Shown piece after piece: positions 9,488-21,032 of a DNA stretch of 64,000 bases (the first letter of the stretch is position 1; each line of letters starts with the position of its first letter). A model generated the notes under the pieces. It was given only the letters and a program-made list of their open reading frames with translations. It was not told the origin of the DNA and ran no database searches. The stretch comes from Gilliamella apicola (GTDB taxonomy: Bacteria > Pseudomonadota > Gammaproteobacteria > Enterobacterales > Orbaceae). Made by a program: the position numbers and the translations under genes. The stretch is taken from contig NZ_CP007445.1 of NCBI RefSeq assembly GCF_000599985.1, positions 1,612,001-1,676,000 of the forward strand, in the 5' to 3' direction.

Positions 9488-10585
9488 TCATTGCTCTGTT
9501 GCTCTTCGTTTAATTGAGGCTTCAATTTTTTTTGCTAGTTCATATATCTCATCTTTCGTCAGCGGAGTTTTGCCTTTGGATTCGCTCTGTTTGCCAATTA
9601 CTGACATAATTAACCATGGGTAATTTTTTGAACTTTGTTTAGCTACTGGATACTGTTCGACAATACTATAGTAACCGTAATCAGACGGAGCGTTATCTTT
9701 GTAACGTATTTCCACAAAGCTTGCTAATCCTTTTCGTCCATCCATCTTAATATCTCGATACTTAAACGGAAAGCCTAATAATTTGATATTTTTAATGTTA
9801 TCATTATTAATATCATAATTCGTATTCCAAAACAGATTGATTTCATCTTTGCTGCTAAAGCTCAATGAATTAGTAAATGACCAAGTACTCTCTGAAAATG
9901 AAATGACAATATCGGGATGTTCATTTAAGCGAAAAGAGACCGTCATATTAATTGGCATCGTTTTATCATTACCAGCAACAAAACCATAGGGTATACATTT
10001 TCCTGCTTCTTTAGGCACTTCAAACAGTTCTCGAACTCTAAAATTATTGATAATGAATTCAGCATTTTGTTTGTAAAATGCAAAATCTTTTTCCTCACCT
10101 TGGTAACGTTCATTTGAATAGAATGTATAAATTCGTTCATTGGCTATTAAAGCTAGATTACTAGCATAATCACTATAATAACCAATTAATTTATTGTTAT
10201 TATTTATATTTTTAATTTTATACTGGCGTTTAGATTTCAATCGTTCATCATAATCGCTATTTAATTGATTAACAATGTTTTTTAGAATTTTTTTGTTAAA
10301 TTTACCATCAGCAATGTCTATATTATTATTATTATAATTAAACGTAGAAAGAATAGCCCATTTACCGTCTAAAAAATAGTTTGGATAATTTGATCTAGGT
10401 TGTAAATAACGCTCAATCGGAAAAAGAGCGATTTCAATATTATCAGGAAGATCAATAGAATAAGATCCAATGCATTCGGTTTTAAATGTTAAATCAGCTG
10501 CCTGCGTAATACTGCTGATAGTCATACAGGTTGTGAATAGTATAAATCTTGTTATATCACTTCTAATCAATTTCAAAGAAGCCAA
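9488..10585 (-). CDS. T6SS immunity protein, Tli4 family (copy 1)
   Basis: The 365-residue precursor has a signal peptide ending at TQAA before DLTFKTECIG and is probably periplasmic. KTECIGSYSIDLP is the hallmark start of Tli4-type proteins, which neutralise Tle4 phospholipases delivered by T6SS; a second conserved block begins EAGKCIPYGFVAG at about residue 200. TTG 10585 is the best start: AGGA lies 8 nt upstream and all three copies share it. It is the last of three tandem copies with a period of about 1120 bp. The C-terminal half is nearly identical among copies, while residues about 60-160 differ more. No Tle4 gene lies in the window. Confidence 0.8.
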   Translation of the reverse strand: MASLKLIRSDITRFILFTTCMTISSITQAADLTFKTECIGSYSIDLPDNIEIALFPIERYLQPRSNYPNYFLDGKWAILSTFNYNNNNIDIADGKFNKKILKNIVNQLNSDYDERLKSKRQYKIKNINNNNKLIGYYSDYASNLALIANERIYTFYSNERYQGEEKDFAFYKQNAEFIINNFRVRELFEVPKEAGKCIPYGFVAGNDKTMPINMTVSFRLNEHPDIVISFSESTWSFTNSLSFSSKDEINLFWNTNYDINNDNIKNIKLLGFPFKYRDIKMDGRKGLASFVEIRYKDNAPSDYGYYSIVEQYPVAKQSSKNYPWLIMSVIGKQSESKGKTPLTKDEIYELAKKIEASIKRRATEQ

Positions 10586-10610
10586 ATTTCTAATCCTTTT
10601 AAATGATCAA

Positions 10611-11702
10611 TCATTGCTCTGTTGCTCTTCGTTTAATTGAGGCTTCAATTTTTTTTGCTAGTTCATATATCTCATCTTTCGTCAGCGGAGTTTTGCCTTT
10701 AGATTCGCTCTGTTTGCCAATTACTGACATAATTAACCATGGGTAATTTTTTGAACTTTTTTTAACTACTGGAATATGTTCGACAATACTATAGTAGCCG
10801 TAATCAGACGGAGCGTTATCTTTATAACGTATTTCCACGAAGCTTGCTAATCCTTTTCGTCCATCCATCTTAATATCTCGATACTTAAACGGAAAGCCTA
10901 ATAATTTGATATTTTTAATGTTATCATTATCGATATCATAATTCGTATTCCAAAACAGATTGATTTCATCTTTGTTGCTAAAGCTCAATGAATTAGTAAA
11001 TGACCAAGTACTCTCTGAAAATGAAATGACAATATCGGGATGTTCATTTAAGCGAAAAGAGACCGTCATATTAATTGGCATCGTTTTATCATTACCAGCA
11101 ACAAAACCATAGGGTATACATTTTCCTGCTTCTTTAGGCACTTCAAACAGTTCTCGAGTTCTAAAATTATTGATAATGGATTCGGCATTTTGTTTGTAAA
11201 ATGCAAAATCTTTTTCCTTACCTTGGTAACGTTTATTAGTATAAAATGAATAAATTCTATTATTTTCAACAAATAACACTCTAGATGCTTTATCTGCATA
11301 ATATCCAAAACCATTATTTTGCTCAAATAATTCTACTAAAATATTAGGATTATTAATTTTAACATTCTTGTTTGAGTTATATAGTTTTTGTTTAATATTG
11401 ATCCATTCTTCATTTTTCCATTTTGCTGTAATAGATAAGTCATTATCATTATAATTAAAAGTTGATAAAATTGCCCATTTACCATCAGAAAAATAGACTG
11501 GAAATCTTGTTTTAGGTTCAAAAAATTTATTGGTAGGATACAGTGCAACCTCAATATTATCAGGTAGATCAATAGAATAAGATCCAATGCATTCGGTTTT
11601 AAATATTAAATCAGCTGCCTGTGTAATACTGCTGATAGCCATACAGGTTGTGAATAGTATAAATCTTGTTATATTACTTCTAATTAATTTCAAAGAGGCC
11701 AA
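10611..11702 (-). CDS. T6SS immunity protein, Tli4 family (copy 2, divergent N-terminal half)
   Basis: This is the middle gene of the tandem array. It shares the signal peptide and the C-terminal half with its neighbours, but has its own sequence over roughly residues 60-150 (ALYPTNKFFEPKTRFP, then WKNEEWINIKQK). I place the start at TTG 11702 by homology. An in-frame ATG at 11732 exists only because of one extra G here and overlaps the stop of copy 3 (ATGA), so translational coupling is possible. The mosaic pattern suggests gene conversion of the conserved half and diversification of the other. Periplasmic Tle4 immunity is inferred from the family. Confidence 0.78.
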   Translation of the reverse strand: MASLKLIRSNITRFILFTTCMAISSITQAADLIFKTECIGSYSIDLPDNIEVALYPTNKFFEPKTRFPVYFSDGKWAILSTFNYNDNDLSITAKWKNEEWINIKQKLYNSNKNVKINNPNILVELFEQNNGFGYYADKASRVLFVENNRIYSFYTNKRYQGKEKDFAFYKQNAESIINNFRTRELFEVPKEAGKCIPYGFVAGNDKTMPINMTVSFRLNEHPDIVISFSESTWSFTNSLSFSNKDEINLFWNTNYDIDNDNIKNIKLLGFPFKYRDIKMDGRKGLASFVEIRYKDNAPSDYGYYSIVEHIPVVKKSSKNYPWLIMSVIGKQSESKGKTPLTKDEIYELAKKIEASIKRRATEQ

Positions 11703-11728
11703 ATTTCCTAATCCTTTTAAATGATCAA

Positions 11729-12826
11729 TCATTGCTCTGTTGCTCTTCGTTTAATTGAGGCTTCAATTTTTTTTGCTAGTTCATAAATCTCATCTTTCGT
11801 CAACGGAGTTTTGCCTTTGGATTCGCTCTGTTTGCCAATTACTGACATAATTAACCATGGGTAATTTTTTGAACTTTGTTTAACTACTGGAACATGTTCG
11901 ACAATACTATAGTAGCCGTAATCAGACGGAGCGTTATCTTTATAACGTATTTCCACGAAGCTTGCTAATCCTTTTCGTCCATCCATCTTAATATCTCGAT
12001 ACTTAAACGGAAAACCTAATAATTTGATATTTTTAATGTTATCATTATTAATATCATAATTTGTATTCCAAAACAGATTGATTTCATCTTTGTTGCTAAA
12101 GCTCAATGAATTAGTAAAATTGCGTGTATTTTCTGAAAATGAGATTACAATATCGGGATGTTCATTTAAGCGAAAAGAAACTGTCATATTAATTGGCATC
12201 GTTTTATCATTACCAGCAACAAAACCATAGAGTATACATTTTCCTGCTTCTTTAGGCACTTCAAACAGTTCTCGAGTTCTAAAATTATTTATAATGGATT
12301 CGGTATTTTGTTTGTAAAATGCAAAATCTTTTTCCTTACCTTGGTAATGTTCATCCGAATAGAATGTATAAATTCGAGCATTGGCTATTAAAGCTAAATC
12401 ACTAGCATAATCATTATAATAACCAATTAATTTATTGTTATTATTTATATTTTTAATTTTATACTGACGTTTAGATTTCAATCGTTCATCATAATCACTA
12501 TTTAATTGGTTAACAATGTTTTGTAGAATTTTTTTGTTAAATTTACCATCAGCAATGTCTATATTATTACGATTATAATTAAACGTAGAAAGAATAGCCC
12601 ATTTACCGTCTAAAAAATAGTTTGGATAATTTGATCTAGGTTGTAAATAACGCTCAATCGGAAAAAGAGCGATTTCAATATTATCTGGAAGATCAATAGA
12701 ATAAGATCCAATACATTCGGTTTTAAATGTTAAATCAGCAGCCTGCGCAATACTGCTGATAGCCATACAGGTTGTGAATAGTATAAATCTTGTTATATCA
12801 CTTCTAATCAATTTCAAAGAAGCCAA
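11729..12826 (-). CDS. T6SS immunity protein, Tli4 family (copy 3)
   Basis: The 365-residue secreted protein is very close to copy 1 throughout: same TTG start with AGGATTAGAAAT upstream, signal peptide ending AQAA, KTECIG start and C-terminal KKIEASIKRRATEQ. It is first in transcription order of the three intact copies. The fragment just upstream (12852-13063) shows that a fourth copy once existed. The second conserved block reads KCILYGF here instead of KCIPYGF. Confidence 0.8.
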   Translation of the reverse strand: MASLKLIRSDITRFILFTTCMAISSIAQAADLTFKTECIGSYSIDLPDNIEIALFPIERYLQPRSNYPNYFLDGKWAILSTFNYNRNNIDIADGKFNKKILQNIVNQLNSDYDERLKSKRQYKIKNINNNNKLIGYYNDYASDLALIANARIYTFYSDEHYQGKEKDFAFYKQNTESIINNFRTRELFEVPKEAGKCILYGFVAGNDKTMPINMTVSFRLNEHPDIVISFSENTRNFTNSLSFSNKDEINLFWNTNYDINNDNIKNIKLLGFPFKYRDIKMDGRKGLASFVEIRYKDNAPSDYGYYSIVEHVPVVKQSSKNYPWLIMSVIGKQSESKGKTPLTKDEIYELAKKIEASIKRRATEQ

Positions 12827-13085: not shown

Positions 13086-13478
13086 CTATTCTTCAACTTT
13101 AATAGTATAAGTTTTCTTAAAGTCTCTTCCCGGACACGACATTGTACCGTAAGTACCTCCATAAAGTTTTATTGTGATTGTCCCTGTAACTTTAGGTGTT
13201 CCTTTTACTTCAAGATGATTATAGGTAACATATTTTGTTCCTAAACCTCTAGGAGATAATTCAAGTCCTGATTTTTCTGGTTGGATATCATAGTAAAAGT
13301 TATCCTGATCAGTGTAGCCACCGAAAACTTCAATTTTAGCATAATAGGGAGTACCTAATATGGCATTGGGTAACGACTTCGGTCGAACTTCCATTTTTTC
13401 CATACAAAAACAACCGTTAAGAACAGTAGTCAAAGAAAATCCAATGATTAACATTAAGTGATATCGTATTTTTTTCAT
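13086..13478 (-). CDS. Ig-like lipoprotein, candidate immunity for the adjacent effector
   Basis: This is a 130-residue lipoprotein: residues 1-22 form a signal peptide and the lipobox L-N-G-C places the lipidated Cys at 23. The mature part reads like one Ig-type beta-sandwich (SLPNAILGTPYYAKIEVFGG, then HLEVKGTPKVTGT, then YTIKVEE), similar to putative-Ig (He_PIG) domains. It lies 89 bp downstream of the cysteine-hydrolase effector candidate, in the same orientation, where T6SS immunity genes normally sit. A second copy of its 5' end survives next to the Tli4 array. No clear ribosome-binding site is visible. The immunity role is inference from position and export. Confidence 0.65.
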   Translation of the reverse strand: MKKIRYHLMLIIGFSLTTVLNGCFCMEKMEVRPKSLPNAILGTPYYAKIEVFGGYTDQDNFYYDIQPEKSGLELSPRGLGTKYVTYNHLEVKGTPKVTGTITIKLYGGTYGTMSCPGRDFKKTYTIKVEE

Positions 13479-13567: not shown

Positions 13568-14794
13568 TTATGGTATTTTACTTATCACAAAAGCTGCATA
13601 AGAGTATCTCATAACATCAGCTAAAGTTGTATTATCTAGTAAATGATTCTTGACCTTACCCCATGAAAAACATGTAAGCTCTACTAGCTCAGTGAGTAGA
13701 GTTTGTTCAGTTACCTCATAACCATTTATTAACTTTAATTTATCTGCCAAAACAATCCAATGGTTTTTAGTTGGAATATTTATCAAGTCATTAAACATTC
13801 GTGATGTTATCAACATGACTACGTGCGTATCTTCACCAACATAAGAATTTAAGCGGCATAAATCTTTTAACGTTAATTTAGGACCTGTTATATGATTTAT
13901 TATCTTTGTATTGATTTCGTAAATAATTTCGGCGCCAGCTTTTTTAAACCACGTTTTAAGATCCCCTGCTGTCGTAATACCCGGAATGTTATCATTAGGA
14001 GAATCATAATCAAAAAAACTATTTTCTGTATCTCTTAAACTTGCTAGAGTTATCCAATCAATAGCTGGAACTTTTGGTAAATATCCTGGCGGTTCATTTT
14101 TAAAAAAGTTTGTCGGATGACGACAATCATAACTAGGTTCTAGTTTTAATGTGCCAATCTTCGTTCTACCCGATTCCCAAAGTTCTTTCACCATCTGTTT
14201 ATACAGATCTGGTCTATCGATCAATAAACAATAAAAAAACGCGGCCGGACCACATAGCATAGATCGATCTTGATTTGGATAATCCAATTTTGCTAATCGA
14301 AATGCCAAACCCTCTTCAATTTTTTCTTTCCTAAAAGGATCATGTTGATCACCGACAGGGTGTTCTTTAGCTTCAAAAGCTCTTGATTTAAAGGTCACCT
14401 TTACACTATATATGAATACATGACCGTTTTGGGTTTTTTCAGTTGTTTCATTGTATTCAAATTCCCTTGATAACCCCCATTTTTTATCAGCTGTTAAAAA
14501 TCCTTTTAGAGGTATAATTGCTGTCATAGGTTCTGGTAACACTTCATATTCATCGTTACCTATTTTATGAAAAAGATTGAGTTCTAAGATATAAGATGTA
14601 TTTTCAGTGGCAGAAATATCTAATGAGGAGTGAACCAATGTCCTCTTATCAGCTTGCAAATTTTGTTTTCCTGTTGATTTTAAAGCATAAATTTTATTAC
14701 CTTTATCATCGATTTTATATAATTCCATTTCATAAACAATATATTTAGGATCAGTTTTAGTCTTAATATATGTTGATATGTTGTATATTGTCAT
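13568..14794 (-). CDS. VgrG-linked cysteine-hydrolase effector candidate (papain/NlpC-like)
   Basis: The 408-residue protein has no signal peptide and follows vgrG by 79 bp (AAGGATG precedes its ATG), the classical place for a T6SS cargo effector. Residues 1-140 are beta-rich and may bind VgrG. From residue 178 comes SMLCGPAAFFYCLL, a Cys181-Gly-Pro at the head of a helix, then DWITLASLRDTEN (246-258), NHWIVLAD (344-351, His345) and CFSWG (375-379). This order of Cys, His and Trp-Gly resembles papain-like or NlpC-like cysteine proteases and amidases. The target could be peptidoglycan or protein; a lipoprotein as putative immunity argues for a periplasmic target. Catalytic assignment is by motif only. 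Confidence 0.65.
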   Translation of the reverse strand: MTIYNISTYIKTKTDPKYIVYEMELYKIDDKGNKIYALKSTGKQNLQADKRTLVHSSLDISATENTSYILELNLFHKIGNDEYEVLPEPMTAIIPLKGFLTADKKWGLSREFEYNETTEKTQNGHVFIYSVKVTFKSRAFEAKEHPVGDQHDPFRKEKIEEGLAFRLAKLDYPNQDRSMLCGPAAFFYCLLIDRPDLYKQMVKELWESGRTKIGTLKLEPSYDCRHPTNFFKNEPPGYLPKVPAIDWITLASLRDTENSFFDYDSPNDNIPGITTAGDLKTWFKKAGAEIIYEINTKIINHITGPKLTLKDLCRLNSYVGEDTHVVMLITSRMFNDLINIPTKNHWIVLADKLKLINGYEVTEQTLLTELVELTCFSWGKVKNHLLDNTTLADVMRYSYAAFVISKIP

Positions 14795-16520
14795 TTAATT
14801 TTCATCCTTAAGATTAAGCTTATATCATTATTCTAAAAGTTAGTGAGTTAATATTTTTTAGCTTAATTCTTTACTAATTGATAAACTCGCCATTGCTTGT
14901 TTTGCTTATCAATAAGCGAATCGCAATTTTTTCTTCTTTTTTTGTATAAAATCTTTCCGTATATCCTTTATCATCTGTTTGCCCTTGTTTAACTGAACCA
15001 TCTTCCATAAAGGCTAAATACTTTGTGTTTTTATATGGTTGATCTTCATCATTTACCATAAGGTATTTTAAGCTATATGTTTTACTTGATGAAAATTCGT
15101 TTGGCATAGCTTTAGGTAATAAAATTTCAAGTATATTTTTCGTTGCTGGTCCCATTTTCTGCATGGCATTACTTTTTATATAAACATTATCAGCCGTACC
15201 CAGTTCAATTCCTGCGCTACTGATTTTGATGTATGAACCACCACACATTAACGTTAGTTCTTCACTTGCGATAACCGTCAGTTCACCATCGACACTGTCT
15301 ATTTTAATATCTTGCTTGGCGGCCATATTTAGGTTGGCATTTTGTGCTTGCACCTCAACATCACCTTGGTTGGCAAAGACTTTCATTCCTGATTTATGGG
15401 CAAATAGACCGATGGATTCACCGGATGAGACGGTTATGTTTTTTAATGCATTGATGTCAGTTTGGTTTTCACTGGTTACTGAAACGCTATTTGACGTTGA
15501 CAGTTGGATGTTTTCAGGACTGGTTAAAGCGATACCTTCTTGTGCATAAGCAAGAATGCCACTTTGGGCTAACTGGGTTAATGTTGTTTTAAGTTGCTCC
15601 TGACTTTCAGTGTCCGCACCATGAGCTTCAGAAGCGGTTGCCGCATTTTGCAGTGCTTTGGCAATTGATAACGCATTTTCAAGCTGAGTAATGGCAGCTT
15701 GCATATCAAGTTGTTTACCCTGAGCTTTAGGCTCGGTCTGACTGGTCAGGTATAAGCCTTTATTGGCAGCAATTGCACCCCACTCATCGGTGCGCAGTTC
15801 AAACCCTTCACCTCGCTGGGTTTTGTTTTGGTCAACTAAATGCCCAATGTTAAGCTGGGTTTTACCATATTCGGTCGCTAACTTGATGTGCTCTTGTCCG
15901 CGTTTATCATCCATCCGTAACTTATTATTCGCCGGTGTGCGAATCACATTACGGTGTTTGTTTATGGTGGTCACATGGTCAGGGTGTTGACTGTCATGCA
16001 TCGCATGCGCGATATAAGGTCGGTCTGGATTACCGTTAGTAAACGCAACTGCAACTTCTGTGCCGTCAATCAGTGGAAAGTGAAAACCATAGGTACTGCC
16101 GGCATACGGTTTAGCCAGCCTTAGCCATAAACTCTCTTCACCGTTTCGCCACTTTTTTAAGTCAAAGTTAAATTTAACCCGATAGCGCCCTTGTGTATCA
16201 ATATAACCATAGGTGTCATTATTCGGACTGGTTATCCGTGCTGGTAAGGTGCCATCAATGGTTGGGAAAGGGATAGGCTCCGGGTGGTAAGGTTTTAATG
16301 GTTGGTAAGGTATCGCGGTAAAACTCAGTTCATAAGCCTCACTGCGGTTTCCCTGTCCTTGCACCGTTAATATCATTATCCCTTCATCTATTCCAGATAT
16401 CGCACTGCCTTTGATGCGGATATGTTGACCTGGTGCTAAATTGGCTTGATTACTTTTACCTCGGATAAGAATTTGACGACTAATCGCTCGCTCATGACGA
16501 ATGCGGGCATACCATTCACC

Positions 16521-16742
16521 ACTTTCAACACCATTATTCGTATTACCAGAGTTAGTGCTAATATCACTGCTGTTGTTATTGCTATTACTACCGTTAGTAT
16601 TATCGCTATTATTGTCGGTGTCATTACTATTGCCGTTACTGTCTTGACTGTCATCGGTATCGGTATCGATATCACCACTGTTTTCATCATCATTATTGTT
16701 GGTGTCACTATCAATTCCATTATTGCTTTTATCATTGGTATT
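16521..16742 (-). repeat. Asn/Asp/Ser-rich low-complexity segment inside vgrG
   Basis: About 74 codons encode almost only Asn, Asp, Ser, Gly and Thr, placed just before the GEWYARIRHE segment leading into the OB fold. Ordinary VgrG proteins lack this. The DNA is made of short imperfect repeats of Asn/Asp/Ser codons, so length variation by slippage is likely. Confidence 0.8.
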
Positions 16743-17351
16743 TAACCCTTTATAGTGCTCATCATAACGGTAATCAGTGCCATAAGTGGTGTTATCTTTC
16801 TGTTGGCTGTTAACTTCACCCAGTAAATTCGCCTGTGCATTTCGGTAGTTATAATCCTGTACTTTTACTGAAGCTTCCACCATTTGACTGTGCAAGGTCA
16901 TATCCCAGACACTTTCAACGCCGTTATCCAGTGTGCCACTTGGTTGTTTGTAGACAATATCAGCCACCTGCTGATAACCTTGTTCATAATCACTGATGAC
17001 CATCACATCACAATTGTGTTCACCATGGGTTTCAAATCGGAAATAGACGCCCACATCAGCAAGCAGTCTTTGAATAAACTCAAGGTCACTCTCTTGCCAC
17101 TGGGTGATAAATTCACGCTCTGGGTATTGCTCTTTAAGTGCTAAACGATAATCAATCCCTGTATAACCATGACCGCGCAATACCTCTTCAACCACACTGA
17201 TAACGCTCTGATTTTGAAAAATAGCACAGTTATGACTTAATGCCAGTTTGGCTAATTGCGAGGACAAAACCACCTGATAACGGGCTTCGTCATTACTCAC
17301 CGATAACTGACTGAACTGGGTTATCACACCATAAAAAGTGCGTGAGCCGCC

Positions 17352-17513
17352 TTGAGATAATAATGAGTTTAAGGAATTAAGTGGATTGAGTTGCGTTAAA
17401 GAGTTAAGTGAATCAAGTGGATTGGATTGTGTAAACTTATCTAACTGTTTTAATGGCTCGGACTGTTTTAATGCTTGTAAAGGATTGGCGGAGGTTAAAG
17501 AATTGAGCGCATC
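17352..17513 (-). repeat. NPL-x-SLNSL repeat insertion in the VgrG N-terminal domain
   Basis: About 54 codons read as a degenerate repeat: ALNSLTSANPLQAL, SNPLDSLNSLTQLNPLNS, LNSLLSQGG. It lies in a loop of the gp27-like domain between the ARLSF/LSDIA strand and RTFYGVI, where most VgrGs are contiguous. The IS sits at its upstream border. Confidence 0.75.
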
Positions 17514-17517
17514 AAGT
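17514..17517. repeat. Target-site duplication AAGT (vgrG 3' side)
   Basis: AAGT flanks the IS end at 17518 and is repeated at 18712-18715, on the other side. Confidence 0.9.
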
Positions 17518-17557
17518 TGTAAATACCCCATTGTTAGCACACAAATCAAGTAGAAAA

Positions 17558-18382
17558 TCATGCTATTTGCTTCATGTTTCTATATTCAATTGGTGTCATA
17601 TTATTTAATGCTTCATGCGGTCTTTCTGTGTTATACATTTCTAACCACTCTTCGGTTATTTTTCTTACTTGTTCCAGATTTTTAAATAAATACAGATCTA
17701 ATACCTCCGTTCGATATGTGCGGTTAAATCGTTCTATATAGCCGTTTTGATAAGGACTACCTGGTTTAATATAATCTAGGGTTATTCCATGTGATTTTGC
17801 CCAACTTGTAAATCTGTTTGAGGTAAATTCTGTGCCATTATCAACGCGTATTTTTAATGGATAACCGTGATATTGAGCCAGTCTGTCTAAATAACGGGTA
17901 ATTCTACCTGCCGATAAACTGACCGCAATATCAATGCCTAATGCCTCTCGATTAAAGTCATCAATAACATTAAAGGTTCTAAATCGGCGGTGATTTTGAG
18001 AACTATCACTCATAAAATCCATTGACCAACATTCTCCCAAACGACTTGGTACTGATAATGGCTCTGGATAACGTTGGGGCAATCGTTTATTGCGTTTAGA
18101 ACGAATATTGAGTTTTAACTGACAATAAACTCGATAAATCCGTTTATGATTCCACGTATATCCCAGTTTCCTGATTCGATGAAAACACTTAGGAAATCCC
18201 CAACGTAAATGCTTGTCTGTTATTGACTTAAGTAATGAAATAATCATAGTGTCATCTGCCGATTTAGGTTGATAGTAGTAAGCACAGCGACTTAAATTCA
18301 CAATAGTGCAACTCATTTTAATTGTTATACAGTATTGTGACTGTAGTGTTTGTGCCCAACTCTTACGAACTGCCGTCGGCAC
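17558..18382 (-). CDS. IS3-family transposase OrfB (DDE integrase catalytic part)
   Basis: The 274-residue frame carries an rve-type integrase core: Asp122 (SMDFMSD), Asp181 (RVDNGTEF) and Glu217 (NGYIERFN), with the D-x35-E spacing typical of IS3-family enzymes. It overlaps orfA and has its own GTG at 18382, but is most likely made as an OrfAB fusion by -1 frameshifting. The fusion enzyme cuts and joins the ends at 17518 and 18711. Confidence 0.93.
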   Translation of the reverse strand: MPTAVRKSWAQTLQSQYCITIKMSCTIVNLSRCAYYYQPKSADDTMIISLLKSITDKHLRWGFPKCFHRIRKLGYTWNHKRIYRVYCQLKLNIRSKRNKRLPQRYPEPLSVPSRLGECWSMDFMSDSSQNHRRFRTFNVIDDFNREALGIDIAVSLSAGRITRYLDRLAQYHGYPLKIRVDNGTEFTSNRFTSWAKSHGITLDYIKPGSPYQNGYIERFNRTYRTEVLDLYLFKNLEQVRKITEEWLEMYNTERPHEALNNMTPIEYRNMKQIA

Positions 18383-18394
18383 TATAGCTTTTTT
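18373..18394 (-). promoter_or_regulatory. Programmed -1 frameshift site of the IS
   Basis: Reading the minus strand, the slippery run A6G (18394-18388) lies just before the orfA stop, and a short TGCC-GAC-GGCA hairpin follows. Slipping by -1 here joins orfA to the orfB frame (K-K-A-I-V-P-T-A-V-R-K), as in other IS3-family elements. Confidence 0.75.
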
Positions 18395-18639
18395 ATTATT
18401 TCTTGCTGGAGCTGAGAAGTTAAACTTAATTCAGCATACATCTGTTTAAGTTTACGATTTTCAGCTTCCAGCTGTTTTAACCGCTTAATGTCCGATGATT
18501 GCATACCGCCATATTTATCTCGCCATTTATAAAAAGTAGAAACGGCCATACCATATTTACGGCAAAGCTCTTTAATAGGGATACCAACTTCAGCTTCTTT
18601 TAAAATGGAGACAATTTGGTGTTCCGATAATTTTTTCAT
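18382..18639 (-). CDS. IS3-family transposase OrfA (DNA-binding subunit)
   Basis: This 85-residue protein has a helix-turn-helix (about residues 6-44: HQIVSILKEAEVGIPIKELC, then YGMAVSTFYKWRDKYGG) followed by a leucine-zipper-like helix (LKQLEAENRKLKQMYAEL). AAGGAG lies about 7 nt before ATG. It binds the terminal repeats, and alone usually dampens transposition. Confidence 0.92.
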   Translation of the reverse strand: MKKLSEHQIVSILKEAEVGIPIKELCRKYGMAVSTFYKWRDKYGGMQSSDIKRLKQLEAENRKLKQMYAELSLTSQLQQEIIKKL

Positions 18640-18711
18640 ATTGAAATTCTCCTTAAAAATATTATAGAGAATTTTCTACTTTTTTATGTACTATTTTAGG
18701 GGATAGTTACA

Positions 18712-18715
18712 AAGT
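18712..18715. repeat. Target-site duplication AAGT (vgrG 5' side)
   Basis: AAGT abuts the IS end at 18711 and matches 17514-17517. Confidence 0.9.
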
Positions 18716-19017
18716 CCTTTCGTTGCAATATCACTTAAATGGTTAGAATTCGCCGAGTTAAAACTCAAACGGGCATTTTGATTAAGAAATGACTCGACAA
18801 GAAGATGTTTATTTGAGCTGGTAAAAGTAATAGTGTAATACCAAGGCTGGTTAAGTTGTTCATTACCTTCAACCTGTAAGATTGAAACCTCAGCAGGTAA
18901 ATCTTCGATATTTAATGTATAACGATTGTGACCCGCGCCATTAACCAAACCATTCTTTAAACCACGACTTAAACCATTCCCCAACTGACTAATCAGATTG
19001 GTTAATCCTTTATCCAT
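18712..19017 (-). pseudogene. vgrG: vgrG (tssI), 5' part, cut off by the IS
   Basis: From ATG 19017, with GAGG at 5 nt, this encodes the first 102 residues of VgrG (MDKGLTNLISQL, then HNRYTLNIEDLPAEVSIL and WYYTITFTSS), the opening strands of the gp27-like domain. It continues a few codons into the IS and stops. An upstream in-frame start at 19044 is less likely because it has no ribosome-binding site. The remainder of the gene is at 14874-17517. Confidence 0.92.
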
Positions 19018-20012
19018 GTTATCCTCGATATATTTCATATACATAGCAAATACGACTATGCTTTATTGAACTGTGTTTATTGTTATTAATAATTATTTAG
19101 TGTTATTTTTTACTAATGGTTTGATTATTTTAAAATTTATTATTATAAGAAAAACGCTTTAATGAATTCACGTTAAAAAACAACCTAAAAAAGAGTATAA
19201 AAATACCCTGTTTTGGGTATTTTGCAACCTTTTTTTGAAATTTTCTTTAACTTAAATTAGATAGATAACTTACTGATATCATTAATTAATTATCAAAATA
19301 TAATTAAAATATATTACTTAAGAATTATCAAAAAAGGATTAACAAAATTTTGCTTTATTAGGTTTTATATTGAATGTTTTGCTCAGAATTTTTATTAAAA
19401 GTTATATATAAAAAATTCTTTTGACTGAAACATACCCATAACCTCAAACTTTTTGACAAAATGACTGACAATACAACAATAAAAATTATTTTTTTAAAAT
19501 CTATAGGATCAAAGATAGTGAATAAGCTTTTAGTGTGATTAAATGATTGAATTAACTTTTATATAAAAAGTTAATTATATTAGTTATTTATAATTTATTT
19601 TGTAAAAAATATTCAGGAGTGTATATCATTTCATTTTTTTAATTCAGTTAAGATTTCTGAAATAAATAAAAAATCATGAATTATTGAAAAAATTGTGATT
19701 TTTAATAATTTAAGGTTTTATTTTGTTCAACAATCTATATCTAAAATTTAAGTCTAAAACGATTTTTTAATAAGCACTATTGTTGACCTAAAACTTTTCA
19801 TAAAATAAAGTTTCAGCTTGAAACAAGTATTTTTACATAAAATAGATTTAAACCAGAATGTATACCCGATCTAAAACTATTTAACAATAGTCTAAAAAAC
19901 TAATGTTGATAGTAAAAGATCAGGTATTTTATAAGTTAGTTAAAAAGTCTAACTAGAGGAATAAAAATACTTTAATAAATACATTTCAAGTTTCATTTAG
20001 CCCAACATTTTG
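19018..20012. other. 995-bp spacer upstream of vgrG
   Basis: No coding sequence was recognised. The part nearest vgrG holds the conserved upstream element listed separately. A short inverted repeat AGTTAG/CTAACT (19934-19954) lies near the end of the DUF3396 gene but has no T-run. Confidence 0.5.
19190..19235 (-). promoter_or_regulatory. Conserved vgrG upstream element with inverted repeat
   Basis: On the minus strand it reads GGTTGCAAAATACCC, AAAACA, GGGTATTTT. The two 9-nt arms (19200-19208 and 19215-19223) pair perfectly. A TTGCAA box followed 16 nt later by TATTTT could be a sigma-70 promoter. The TTTGCAACC core starts 204 nt before the vgrG start, and the same core starts 204 nt before the ghost vgrG at 21311. 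Confidence 0.55.
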
Positions 20013-21032
20013 CTAATCTTCAGAATCTTTTGATGGAAGATCAGTTGGAATTACATCATCGAAACGAGATTGCCATCCTTTAGAAGTTTGGCTATCTTGA
20101 ATTTTACCGTTATTTGAAGTAAACCCAAATGAAGCTATCATTGGAGCTCGTGCATTTTTTAATAATGCATTAGCATTAACATAATGTTCAGGATAAGGAT
20201 TACGACTAATATCACAAAATTCTGGCACTTCACCAGCCTGAACCATTACTCCGCCAGTGTAGGGATGAAAAATAACGCCCTCATCACTATTTTGTTGTTT
20301 AACTTCATCAAGGCTACCTAGTTTTTCAGTGAATAGTTCTTCACTAAGTATTGTTAGCCAGTTAATGCTTTTAAATCCGTCTCTGAAATGTTTATCTTCT
20401 TCATCAGTAGAAATATCTAGTCCTAAATATTTGCGTGCTAATTCACCTTCTAAATATTGAAAATCATAATATTTATAACGCTGCCTTATGCCTAAACCAA
20501 AAAAACCATGTAAAGGTTTTAAAATTTGACTTACTTGTCGGATGAATTCTACTAATTTATCAACACCAAAATATTTCAATTCATAAATTGGCAAATAAAT
20601 TTGTAAATAACTAACTGTGTTGAATTTTTTTTCAAGAGATTCAGATCTTGATAAGACTTTAATTAAATAATCAGGGATTAAATATAATTTCTCTACATTG
20701 CTCCAATAAAAACTTAATGTATCTAAACAAAAGCCATTATTAAGTATTATTTTTTGAGCTAAACTAATATTTTGATACTGATATAACGTATTCGGATCCC
20801 CATCACCAAAACCATAATTAAGATATTTTCCCCAATATTTATCGTATAATGATAAAACTTGATTAATTGCTTGACGTTTTTCGGGTTTATAAGATTTGTC
20901 TAAATAAAAGCATCCAATTAACCCTATTTTTAAAGCATTTTCAGTATGATCCAAGTCTAAATAACGACCAAAACTAAACTTATCATAGTTTGATTTATAT
21001 TCTTCTAAGAGTTGCTGCAATTTATCGTTCAT
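20013..21032 (-). CDS. Type VI immunity family protein (DUF3396)
   Basis: The 339-residue cytoplasmic protein has the C-terminal pattern of DUF3396, annotated as 'type VI immunity family': LARKYLGLDIS, SINWLTILSEEL, EGVIFHPYTGGVMVQAGEVPEFCD and LPxY-like YPEHYVNANALLKNARAP. It follows the ghost vgrG start (21084-21311) and precedes the IS-cut vgrG. Its cognate toxin is missing, so it is probably an orphan immunity gene left when the toxin and most of the older vgrG were deleted. Confidence 0.8.
   Translation of the reverse strand: MNDKLQQLLEEYKSNYDKFSFGRYLDLDHTENALKIGLIGCFYLDKSYKPEKRQAINQVLSLYDKYWGKYLNYGFGDGDPNTLYQYQNISLAQKIILNNGFCLDTLSFYWSNVEKLYLIPDYLIKVLSRSESLEKKFNTVSYLQIYLPIYELKYFGVDKLVEFIRQVSQILKPLHGFFGLGIRQRYKYYDFQYLEGELARKYLGLDISTDEEDKHFRDGFKSINWLTILSEELFTEKLGSLDEVKQQNSDEGVIFHPYTGGVMVQAGEVPEFCDISRNPYPEHYVNANALLKNARAPMIASFGFTSNNGKIQDSQTSKGWQSRFDDVIPTDLPSKDSED

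What the first reader, a model, noticed from the sequence alone, without database searches (positions are those of the whole stretch)
14874..19017. vgrG knocked out by a fresh-looking IS3-family element with a perfect 4-bp target duplication
The IS occupies 17518-18711 with AAGT on both sides. Removing it and one AAGT restores an uninterrupted 981-codon vgrG: codon 102 (CTT) joins GAT GCG in frame. The rest of the gene shows no decay, and both transposase frames are intact, so the insertion is recent. The strain probably lost this spike, yet keeps the downstream effector and immunity genes.
Basis: seen in the sequence. Interest (0 to 1): 0.75.

Follow-up and report, generated by a model that had tools for sequence, protein, structure and literature searches.

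The report
Jumping gene splits bacterial spike gene
In a bee-gut bacterium a small jumping gene has recently landed in one of about ten copies of a gene for the tip of a molecular harpoon, probably disabling that copy and stranding its payload; this kind of event is ordinary and already reported for this genus.

Summary
A 1194-bp IS3-family element (17518-18711) lies in a type VI secretion vgrG, flanked by AAGT. In all 7 close paralogs in the same genome, and in 3 of 4 relatives' loci that align along the junction, the two gene pieces are contiguous, sharing those 4 bases once. The genome is a Gilliamella (bee gut). It holds 8 full copies of the element; the window copy and five others differ by at most 2 bases, so the element was recently active. 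The downstream 895-codon frame is undecayed. Most likely this is recent insertional inactivation of one of ten VgrGs; the other nine have open frames and the seven T6SS core frames scanned are open, so the machine should still work. What is probably lost is delivery of one payload: a 408-aa putative papain-like protease that sits beside this VgrG tail in 6 of 6 genomes carrying it. Mobile-element disruption of Gilliamella vgrG is published (PMC8125069). Low interest.

The parts
18712..19017 (-). 5' piece of vgrG (about the first 102 codons); as an open frame it runs on into the IS (ORF 18691-19044 from an upstream ATG, 117 aa)
   Evidence: matches profile positions 3-59 of TIGR03361 (E 6e-4, far below that model's curated cut-off); no Pfam match; 100% identical over 389 bp to the 673-kb paralog
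14874..17517 (-). 3' piece of vgrG (rest of gp27-like hub, OB domain, Vgr, DUF2345, effector-specific tail); its open frame, 14874-17561 of 895 codons, begins inside the IS
   Evidence: Phage_GPD from profile position 37, T6SS_Vgr, DUF2345, Phage_base_V above cut-off
17518..18711 (-). IS3-family insertion sequence, same orientation as vgrG; imperfect terminal inverted repeats
   Evidence: transpos_IS3 NF033516
18382..18639 (-). IS orfA (85 aa, helix-turn-helix)
17558..18382 (-). IS orfB (274 aa, rve integrase core); its stop overlaps the start of the 895-codon vgrG frame (ATGA, 17561-17558)
17514..17517 (.). target-site duplication AAGT, left copy
18712..18715 (.). target-site duplication AAGT, right copy
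13568..14794 (-). 408-aa VgrG-linked effector candidate; probable papain-like cysteine protease fold in residues about 169-408, invariant C181 and H345
   Evidence: beside the same VgrG tail in 6 of 6 genomes carrying it
13086..13478 (-). 130-aa lipoprotein-like protein, probable cognate immunity protein (1-3 copies follow the effector in 5 of 5 relatives carrying it)
   Evidence: no Pfam or NCBIfam match; the lipoprotein reading is by eye from the N-terminus
9488..12826 (-). three similar proteins in tandem; the one scanned (11729-12826) has a Tli4_C domain; possible orphan immunity array
   Evidence: similar translations, by eye; one search scanned one of the three
20013..21032 (-). TsiV-type putative T6SS immunity gene upstream; partner not sought
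19018..19639 (-). leader of about 600 bp shared by most own-genome vgrG paralogs (promoter/5' region); present here

Best explanation
A recently active IS3-family element of this Gilliamella genome transposed, with a 4-bp target duplication, into one of ten vgrG genes, in the DNA for a low-complexity loop of the N-terminal gp27-like hub. Shown: the insertion, the duplication, undecayed flanks, recent multiplication of the element, nine other open vgrG frames, open T6SS core frames, and a VgrG tail that the other nine lack or barely resemble. Inferred: no complete VgrG trimer of this type forms, because the first ~100 residues are cut from the rest; the T6SS still fires with the other spikes; the linked 408-aa cysteine-protease-like effector is not delivered; effector and putative immunity genes persist because the event is young and immunity may still be useful.
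For: Coordinates and repeat; contiguous pieces sharing 4 bases in 7 of 7 close paralogs and 3 of 4 relatives' loci; 8 full IS copies, the window copy and five others within 2 bases, 6 of 8 with identical 4-bp flanks; intact transposase frames; 9 of 9 tail-matching VgrGs elsewhere unsplit; nine other vgrG loci with open frames of 805-1019 aa; one VipB locus, where seven frames scanned (ClpV-like ATPase, Hcp, OmpA-domain, DotU, VasE, VipB, VipA) are open; tail-effector linkage 6 of 6; tail (residues 806-895) unmatched in 7 of the other 9 vgrG loci and only weakly matched in 2 (36% over 61 and 38% over 52 residues).
Against: The downstream frame is open from an ATG that overlaps the transposase stop, so a truncated protein could be made; the break lies in a loop that the solved VgrG 2P5Z lacks in the alignment of an intact homolog. 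Two of 8 IS copies lack matching flanks, so not every copy is a simple recent insertion. Two other vgrGs have weakly similar tails, so delivery by another spike is not excluded. No sister isolate, and no expression or secretion data.
Confidence: 0.92

Rival explanations
1. Split spike: the IS breaks VgrG in a disordered loop and both halves are still made, the 3' half by re-initiation at the ATGA overlap with transposase orfB, and they assemble without a covalent link.
For: IS and vgrG are co-oriented; the orfB stop and the start of the 895-codon frame overlap as ATGA; the break is in a low-complexity insert that falls between residues 70 and 74 of 2P5Z in the alignment of an intact homolog.
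Against: The overlap is a property of the IS end and by frame alone would link to the target gene in about one in three co-oriented insertions (inference); the new N-terminus is a hydrophobic stretch of about 15 codons from the IS; IS transcription is usually low (general knowledge); no split form was seen in relatives.
Confidence: 0.03
2. Reversible reserve: recombination with one of seven close paralogs can replace the interrupted 5' part, so the cassette is a stored, not lost, weapon.
For: The gene is already mosaic: about 503 bases around the insertion point are identical to the 673-kb paralog, against a longest exact shared run of 218 in the 21 pairs among the seven intact paralogs; paralogs are 91-94% identical in DNA over the 3' piece.
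Against: Identity shows past exchange, not future repair; vgrG turnover in this genus is reported to leave many fragments, as does the own remnant at 2063 kb.
Confidence: 0.05
3. The insertion is an older, fixed polymorphism of the lineage rather than recent.
For: Only one genome per species is held for the genome searches; same-species isolates were not examined.
Against: Window copy identical to two other copies and within 2 bases of three more; no decay in the 895-codon frame; split form absent from 9 of 9 tail-matching proteins.
Confidence: 0.06
4. Assembly artefact: a repeated IS misplaced by the assembler.
For: The element is present in 8 nearly identical full copies, which can mislead assembly.
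Against: Single 3.14-Mb contig; a perfect 4-bp duplication at this site, different from those at the other copies.
Confidence: 0.02

Closest known systems
Mobile-element and nonsense disruption of vgrG in bee-gut Orbaceae including Gilliamella (PMC8125069, mSystems 2021; section 10 read whole, other passages)
   Same: Same genus; multiple satellite vgrG genes, many fragments, mobile genetic elements inserted in vgrG (text and Fig. 7 legend)
   Different: That section does not give this site, the element's family, the target duplication or the ATGA overlap; figures and supplements were not seen
Decayed aux clusters in Ralstonia (PMC11481896; passages only)
   Same: IS or mutation in vgrG with effector or immunity genes left; 251 of 1,066 clusters decayed, 70.5% of those with vgrG mutations
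   Different: Other organism and T6SS subtype
IS-disrupted VgrG VSAL_I1744 of Aliivibrio salmonicida (PMC2627896; passages only)
   Same: One vgrG copy disrupted by an IS while other copies persist
   Different: One sentence in the passages seen, no anatomy
VgrG homolog fused to a transposon subunit in Aeromonas salmonicida A449 (PMC2556355; one passage)
   Same: Partial VgrG joined to a transposable-element frame while a complete vgrG exists elsewhere
   Different: Anatomy not given in the passage; other T6SS genes are broken there too
Effector displacement and orphan immunity arrays in Vibrio cholerae (PMC5361080; abstract, start of the introduction and outline)
   Same: Effector modules replaced, old immunity genes kept, recombination
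   Different: There the effector is displaced; here the spike is broken by an IS and the effector stays

Membership tests
IS3 family | transposase of the IS3 family in two overlapping frames | tested here: met
   orfB 9-268 to NF033516 transpos_IS3 at 221.5 bits (cut-off 160); orfA matches its N-terminal part at 47 bits, alone below the cut-off; frames meet at 18382
IS3 family | imperfect terminal inverted repeats | tested here: met
   TGTAAATACCCC and TGTAACTATCCCC, with a further identical AAGTAGAAAA at positions 31-40 of both ends; that IS3 elements have such ends is recalled
IS3 family | short target duplication (3-5 bp, recalled) | tested here: met
   4 bp here; identical 4-bp flanks in 6 of 8 full copies
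IS3 family | programmed -1 frameshift making OrfAB (recalled) | not testable with these tools
   an A6G run lies before the orfA stop and the frame of orfB is open for 290 codons, which reaches past it; frameshifting itself not shown
VgrG/TssI | gp27-like hub, OB domain and needle domains | tested here: met
   3' piece: Phage_GPD, Phage_base_V, T6SS_Vgr, DUF2345 above cut-offs; 5' piece only weakly, profile positions 3-59 of TIGR03361
functional VgrG | uninterrupted reading frame | tested here: not met
   interrupted by the IS
papain-like cysteine protease (the 408-aa effector candidate) | papain-like fold with Cys and His | tested here: inconclusive
T6SS effector-immunity pair | effector linked to VgrG and to a neutralising immunity gene | tested here: inconclusive
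   linkage seen; neutralisation not testable here

The most novel reading that the evidence does not exclude
The IS has turned one VgrG into a two-piece spike: its 3' part is translationally coupled to the transposase through the ATGA overlap, and the pieces assemble at a disordered loop, so that T6SS spike output would depend on IS expression.
Probability: 0.03. Interest if true: 0.65.

Novelty: new member of a known kind. Interest (0 to 1): 0.2.

Why it matters
It is a clean, young snapshot of how an interbacterial weapon repertoire erodes: the delivery part for one payload breaks while payload and immunity genes remain, in a genome whose other copy of the same cassette is broken too. It fits the published picture of vgrG turnover in Gilliamella and gives a natural test of how strictly an effector depends on its own VgrG when seven near-identical spikes with other tails are present.

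Tried and rejected
Rfam scan of 17000-20100 found nothing. In 17400-19700, promoter-like matches are at the shuffled level (13 against 12.4); terminator-like ones are somewhat above it (3 against 1.0), one of them a hairpin at 19223-19200 in the leader, but that hairpin is not kept in most paralogs, so an attenuator was not pursued. Special targeting of vgrG by the IS is not needed: ten vgrG genes are about 0.9% of the genome, giving about 7% chance that at least one of 8 copies lands in one (lengths typed in from the open frames, so approximate). The search for related loci with the effector in genome contigs confirmed none. A profile search of PDB sequences with the effector family gave two weak hits to single-stranded DNA-binding proteins. 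A PADLOC scan of four neighbours gave only PDC-M20B matches to the TsiV-type gene. A paper search for Gilliamella with insertion sequence, transposase and type VI secretion found none, although PMC8125069 covers the subject in other words. Papers were seen as search listings only, apart from PMC5361080 and PMC8125069; passages of PMC7827689 showed no IS in vgrG. Many rows of the VIA table match only the N-terminal beta domain and were not interpreted.

Full report
What is there. The window is part of a single-contig genome of 3,139,412 bases. Eight proteins match the VgrG tail at 95-98%, and those of them that a source names come from Gilliamella, so the host is a Gilliamella, a bee-gut symbiont; the species was not determined. 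On the minus strand a vgrG runs from 19017 to 14874 and is interrupted by an element at 17518-18711 with AAGT on both sides.

More than chance. The two pieces were compared apart with 32 loci (L009-L040; L009 and L021 are the window itself; L017-L020 cover two genes twice). In 7 of 7 close paralogs in the same genome (L010-L016) and in L022, L023 and L024 of relatives they are contiguous and share exactly four bases; in a fourth relative's locus, L025, the alignments leave 58 bases between them, far less than an IS. The remaining loci do not align up to the junction on both sides and say nothing.

The element. orfB matches the NCBIfam IS3 transposase model at 221.5 bits; orfA matches its N-terminal part. 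The genome has 8 full copies: three identical (the window copy included), two with 1 difference, one with 2, and two with 6 differences plus a 12-base insertion, one of which has a shortened orfB frame. Six of 8 have identical 4-bp flanks, 2 do not. Among 35 genus genomes 21 have some match; full-length copies listed outside this genome are at 95% in G018 and at 73-78% elsewhere, in a list that was cut.

State of the gene. The downstream frame is open for 895 codons from an ATG inside the element. That ATG overlaps the orfB stop as ATGA (17561-17558). Pfam's Phage_GPD match in this frame starts at profile position 37, and the 5' piece matches positions 3-59 of TIGR03361 weakly, so the break removes the first part of the hub. 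In an intact homolog (P0004) the region of the break falls between the stretches aligned to residues 70 and 74 of 2P5Z: an extra low-complexity loop.

Redundancy. Ten vgrG loci were found: this one, seven at 89-97% protein identity with open frames of 919-1019 aa, and two distant ones with 805 and 843 aa, plus a fragment at 2063 kb. One VipB locus exists; the seven frames scanned there (ClpV-like ATPase, Hcp, OmpA-domain, DotU, VasE, VipB, VipA) are all open. Not every T6SS gene was checked.

Which spike could carry it. Residues 806-895 of the 895-codon frame find no match (E<=0.01) in 7 of the other 9 vgrG loci and only weak ones in two (994 kb, 36% over 61 residues; 1101 kb, 38% over 52), while the preceding 106 residues match all nine. 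So the tail is nearly private to this gene in this genome, and the payload is probably stranded; a weak substitute is not excluded.

A second broken copy. At 2063 kb lies another copy of the cassette: a VgrG fragment, the C-terminal half of the effector in two frames, two complete and one partial lipoprotein-like genes. The relative G002 has a complete cassette at the corresponding place: its flanks match this genome's 2044-2048-kb and 2064-2070-kb stretches at 98.2% over 3981 bp and 91.3% over 5832 bp. This genome therefore seems to have lost delivery of this payload twice, once by displacement at the corresponding site and once by the IS at the window's copy; which copy is older was not tested.

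History of the gene. The 405 bases upstream of the break and the 102 downstream are identical to the 673-kb vgrG (about 503 counting the duplication once), whereas the longest exact run in the 21 pairs among the seven intact paralogs is 218. Exchange between vgrG copies probably came before the insertion.

Novelty. [quoted passage not shown] Disrupted vgrG is also in print for Ralstonia, Aliivibrio and Aeromonas (passages). This is one more case; whether this exact site is in that paper's supplements was not looked up.

The tail claim now rests, where before it was drawn from match ends; the correspondence with G002 now rests on DNA alignment, where before it rested on ORF sizes.

Noticed in passing
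window 16500-16800: A D/N/S/G-rich low-complexity segment of VgrG between hub and OB domain is where most differences and gaps between paralogs pile up; its length varies between homologs.
   Followed up: partly
window 19018-19639: A leader of about 600 bp is shared by six of seven close own-genome vgrG paralogs (81-94% over vgrG start plus leader) and alignable in G002, G005 and G014; no Rfam match. The 994-kb copy lacks most of it.
   Followed up: partly
window 13568-14794: The 408-aa effector candidate belongs to an unnamed family of at least 342 proteins with a probable papain-like fold and a separate N-terminal beta domain; no Pfam, NCBIfam or PADLOC match.
   Followed up: partly
L058 4536-6642: Broken second copy of the cassette (VgrG fragment, C-terminal part of the effector, lipoprotein-like genes) at the place where relative G002 has a complete one.
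   Followed up: partly
L004 right flank: Beyond this IS copy the flank repeats about 30 bases of the inside of the IS right end, suggesting a second partial end next to it.
   Followed up: no
window 19597-19640: A stretch of about 44 bp recurs at other vgrG loci away from the leader, three times in L049, once each in L047 and L057.
   Followed up: no
P0133, P0145: Two short VgrG N-terminal proteins (one named Gilliamella apicola, one unnamed) end in the same odd tail, SFSPRILTI, hinting at a shared break upstream of the IS site.
   Followed up: no
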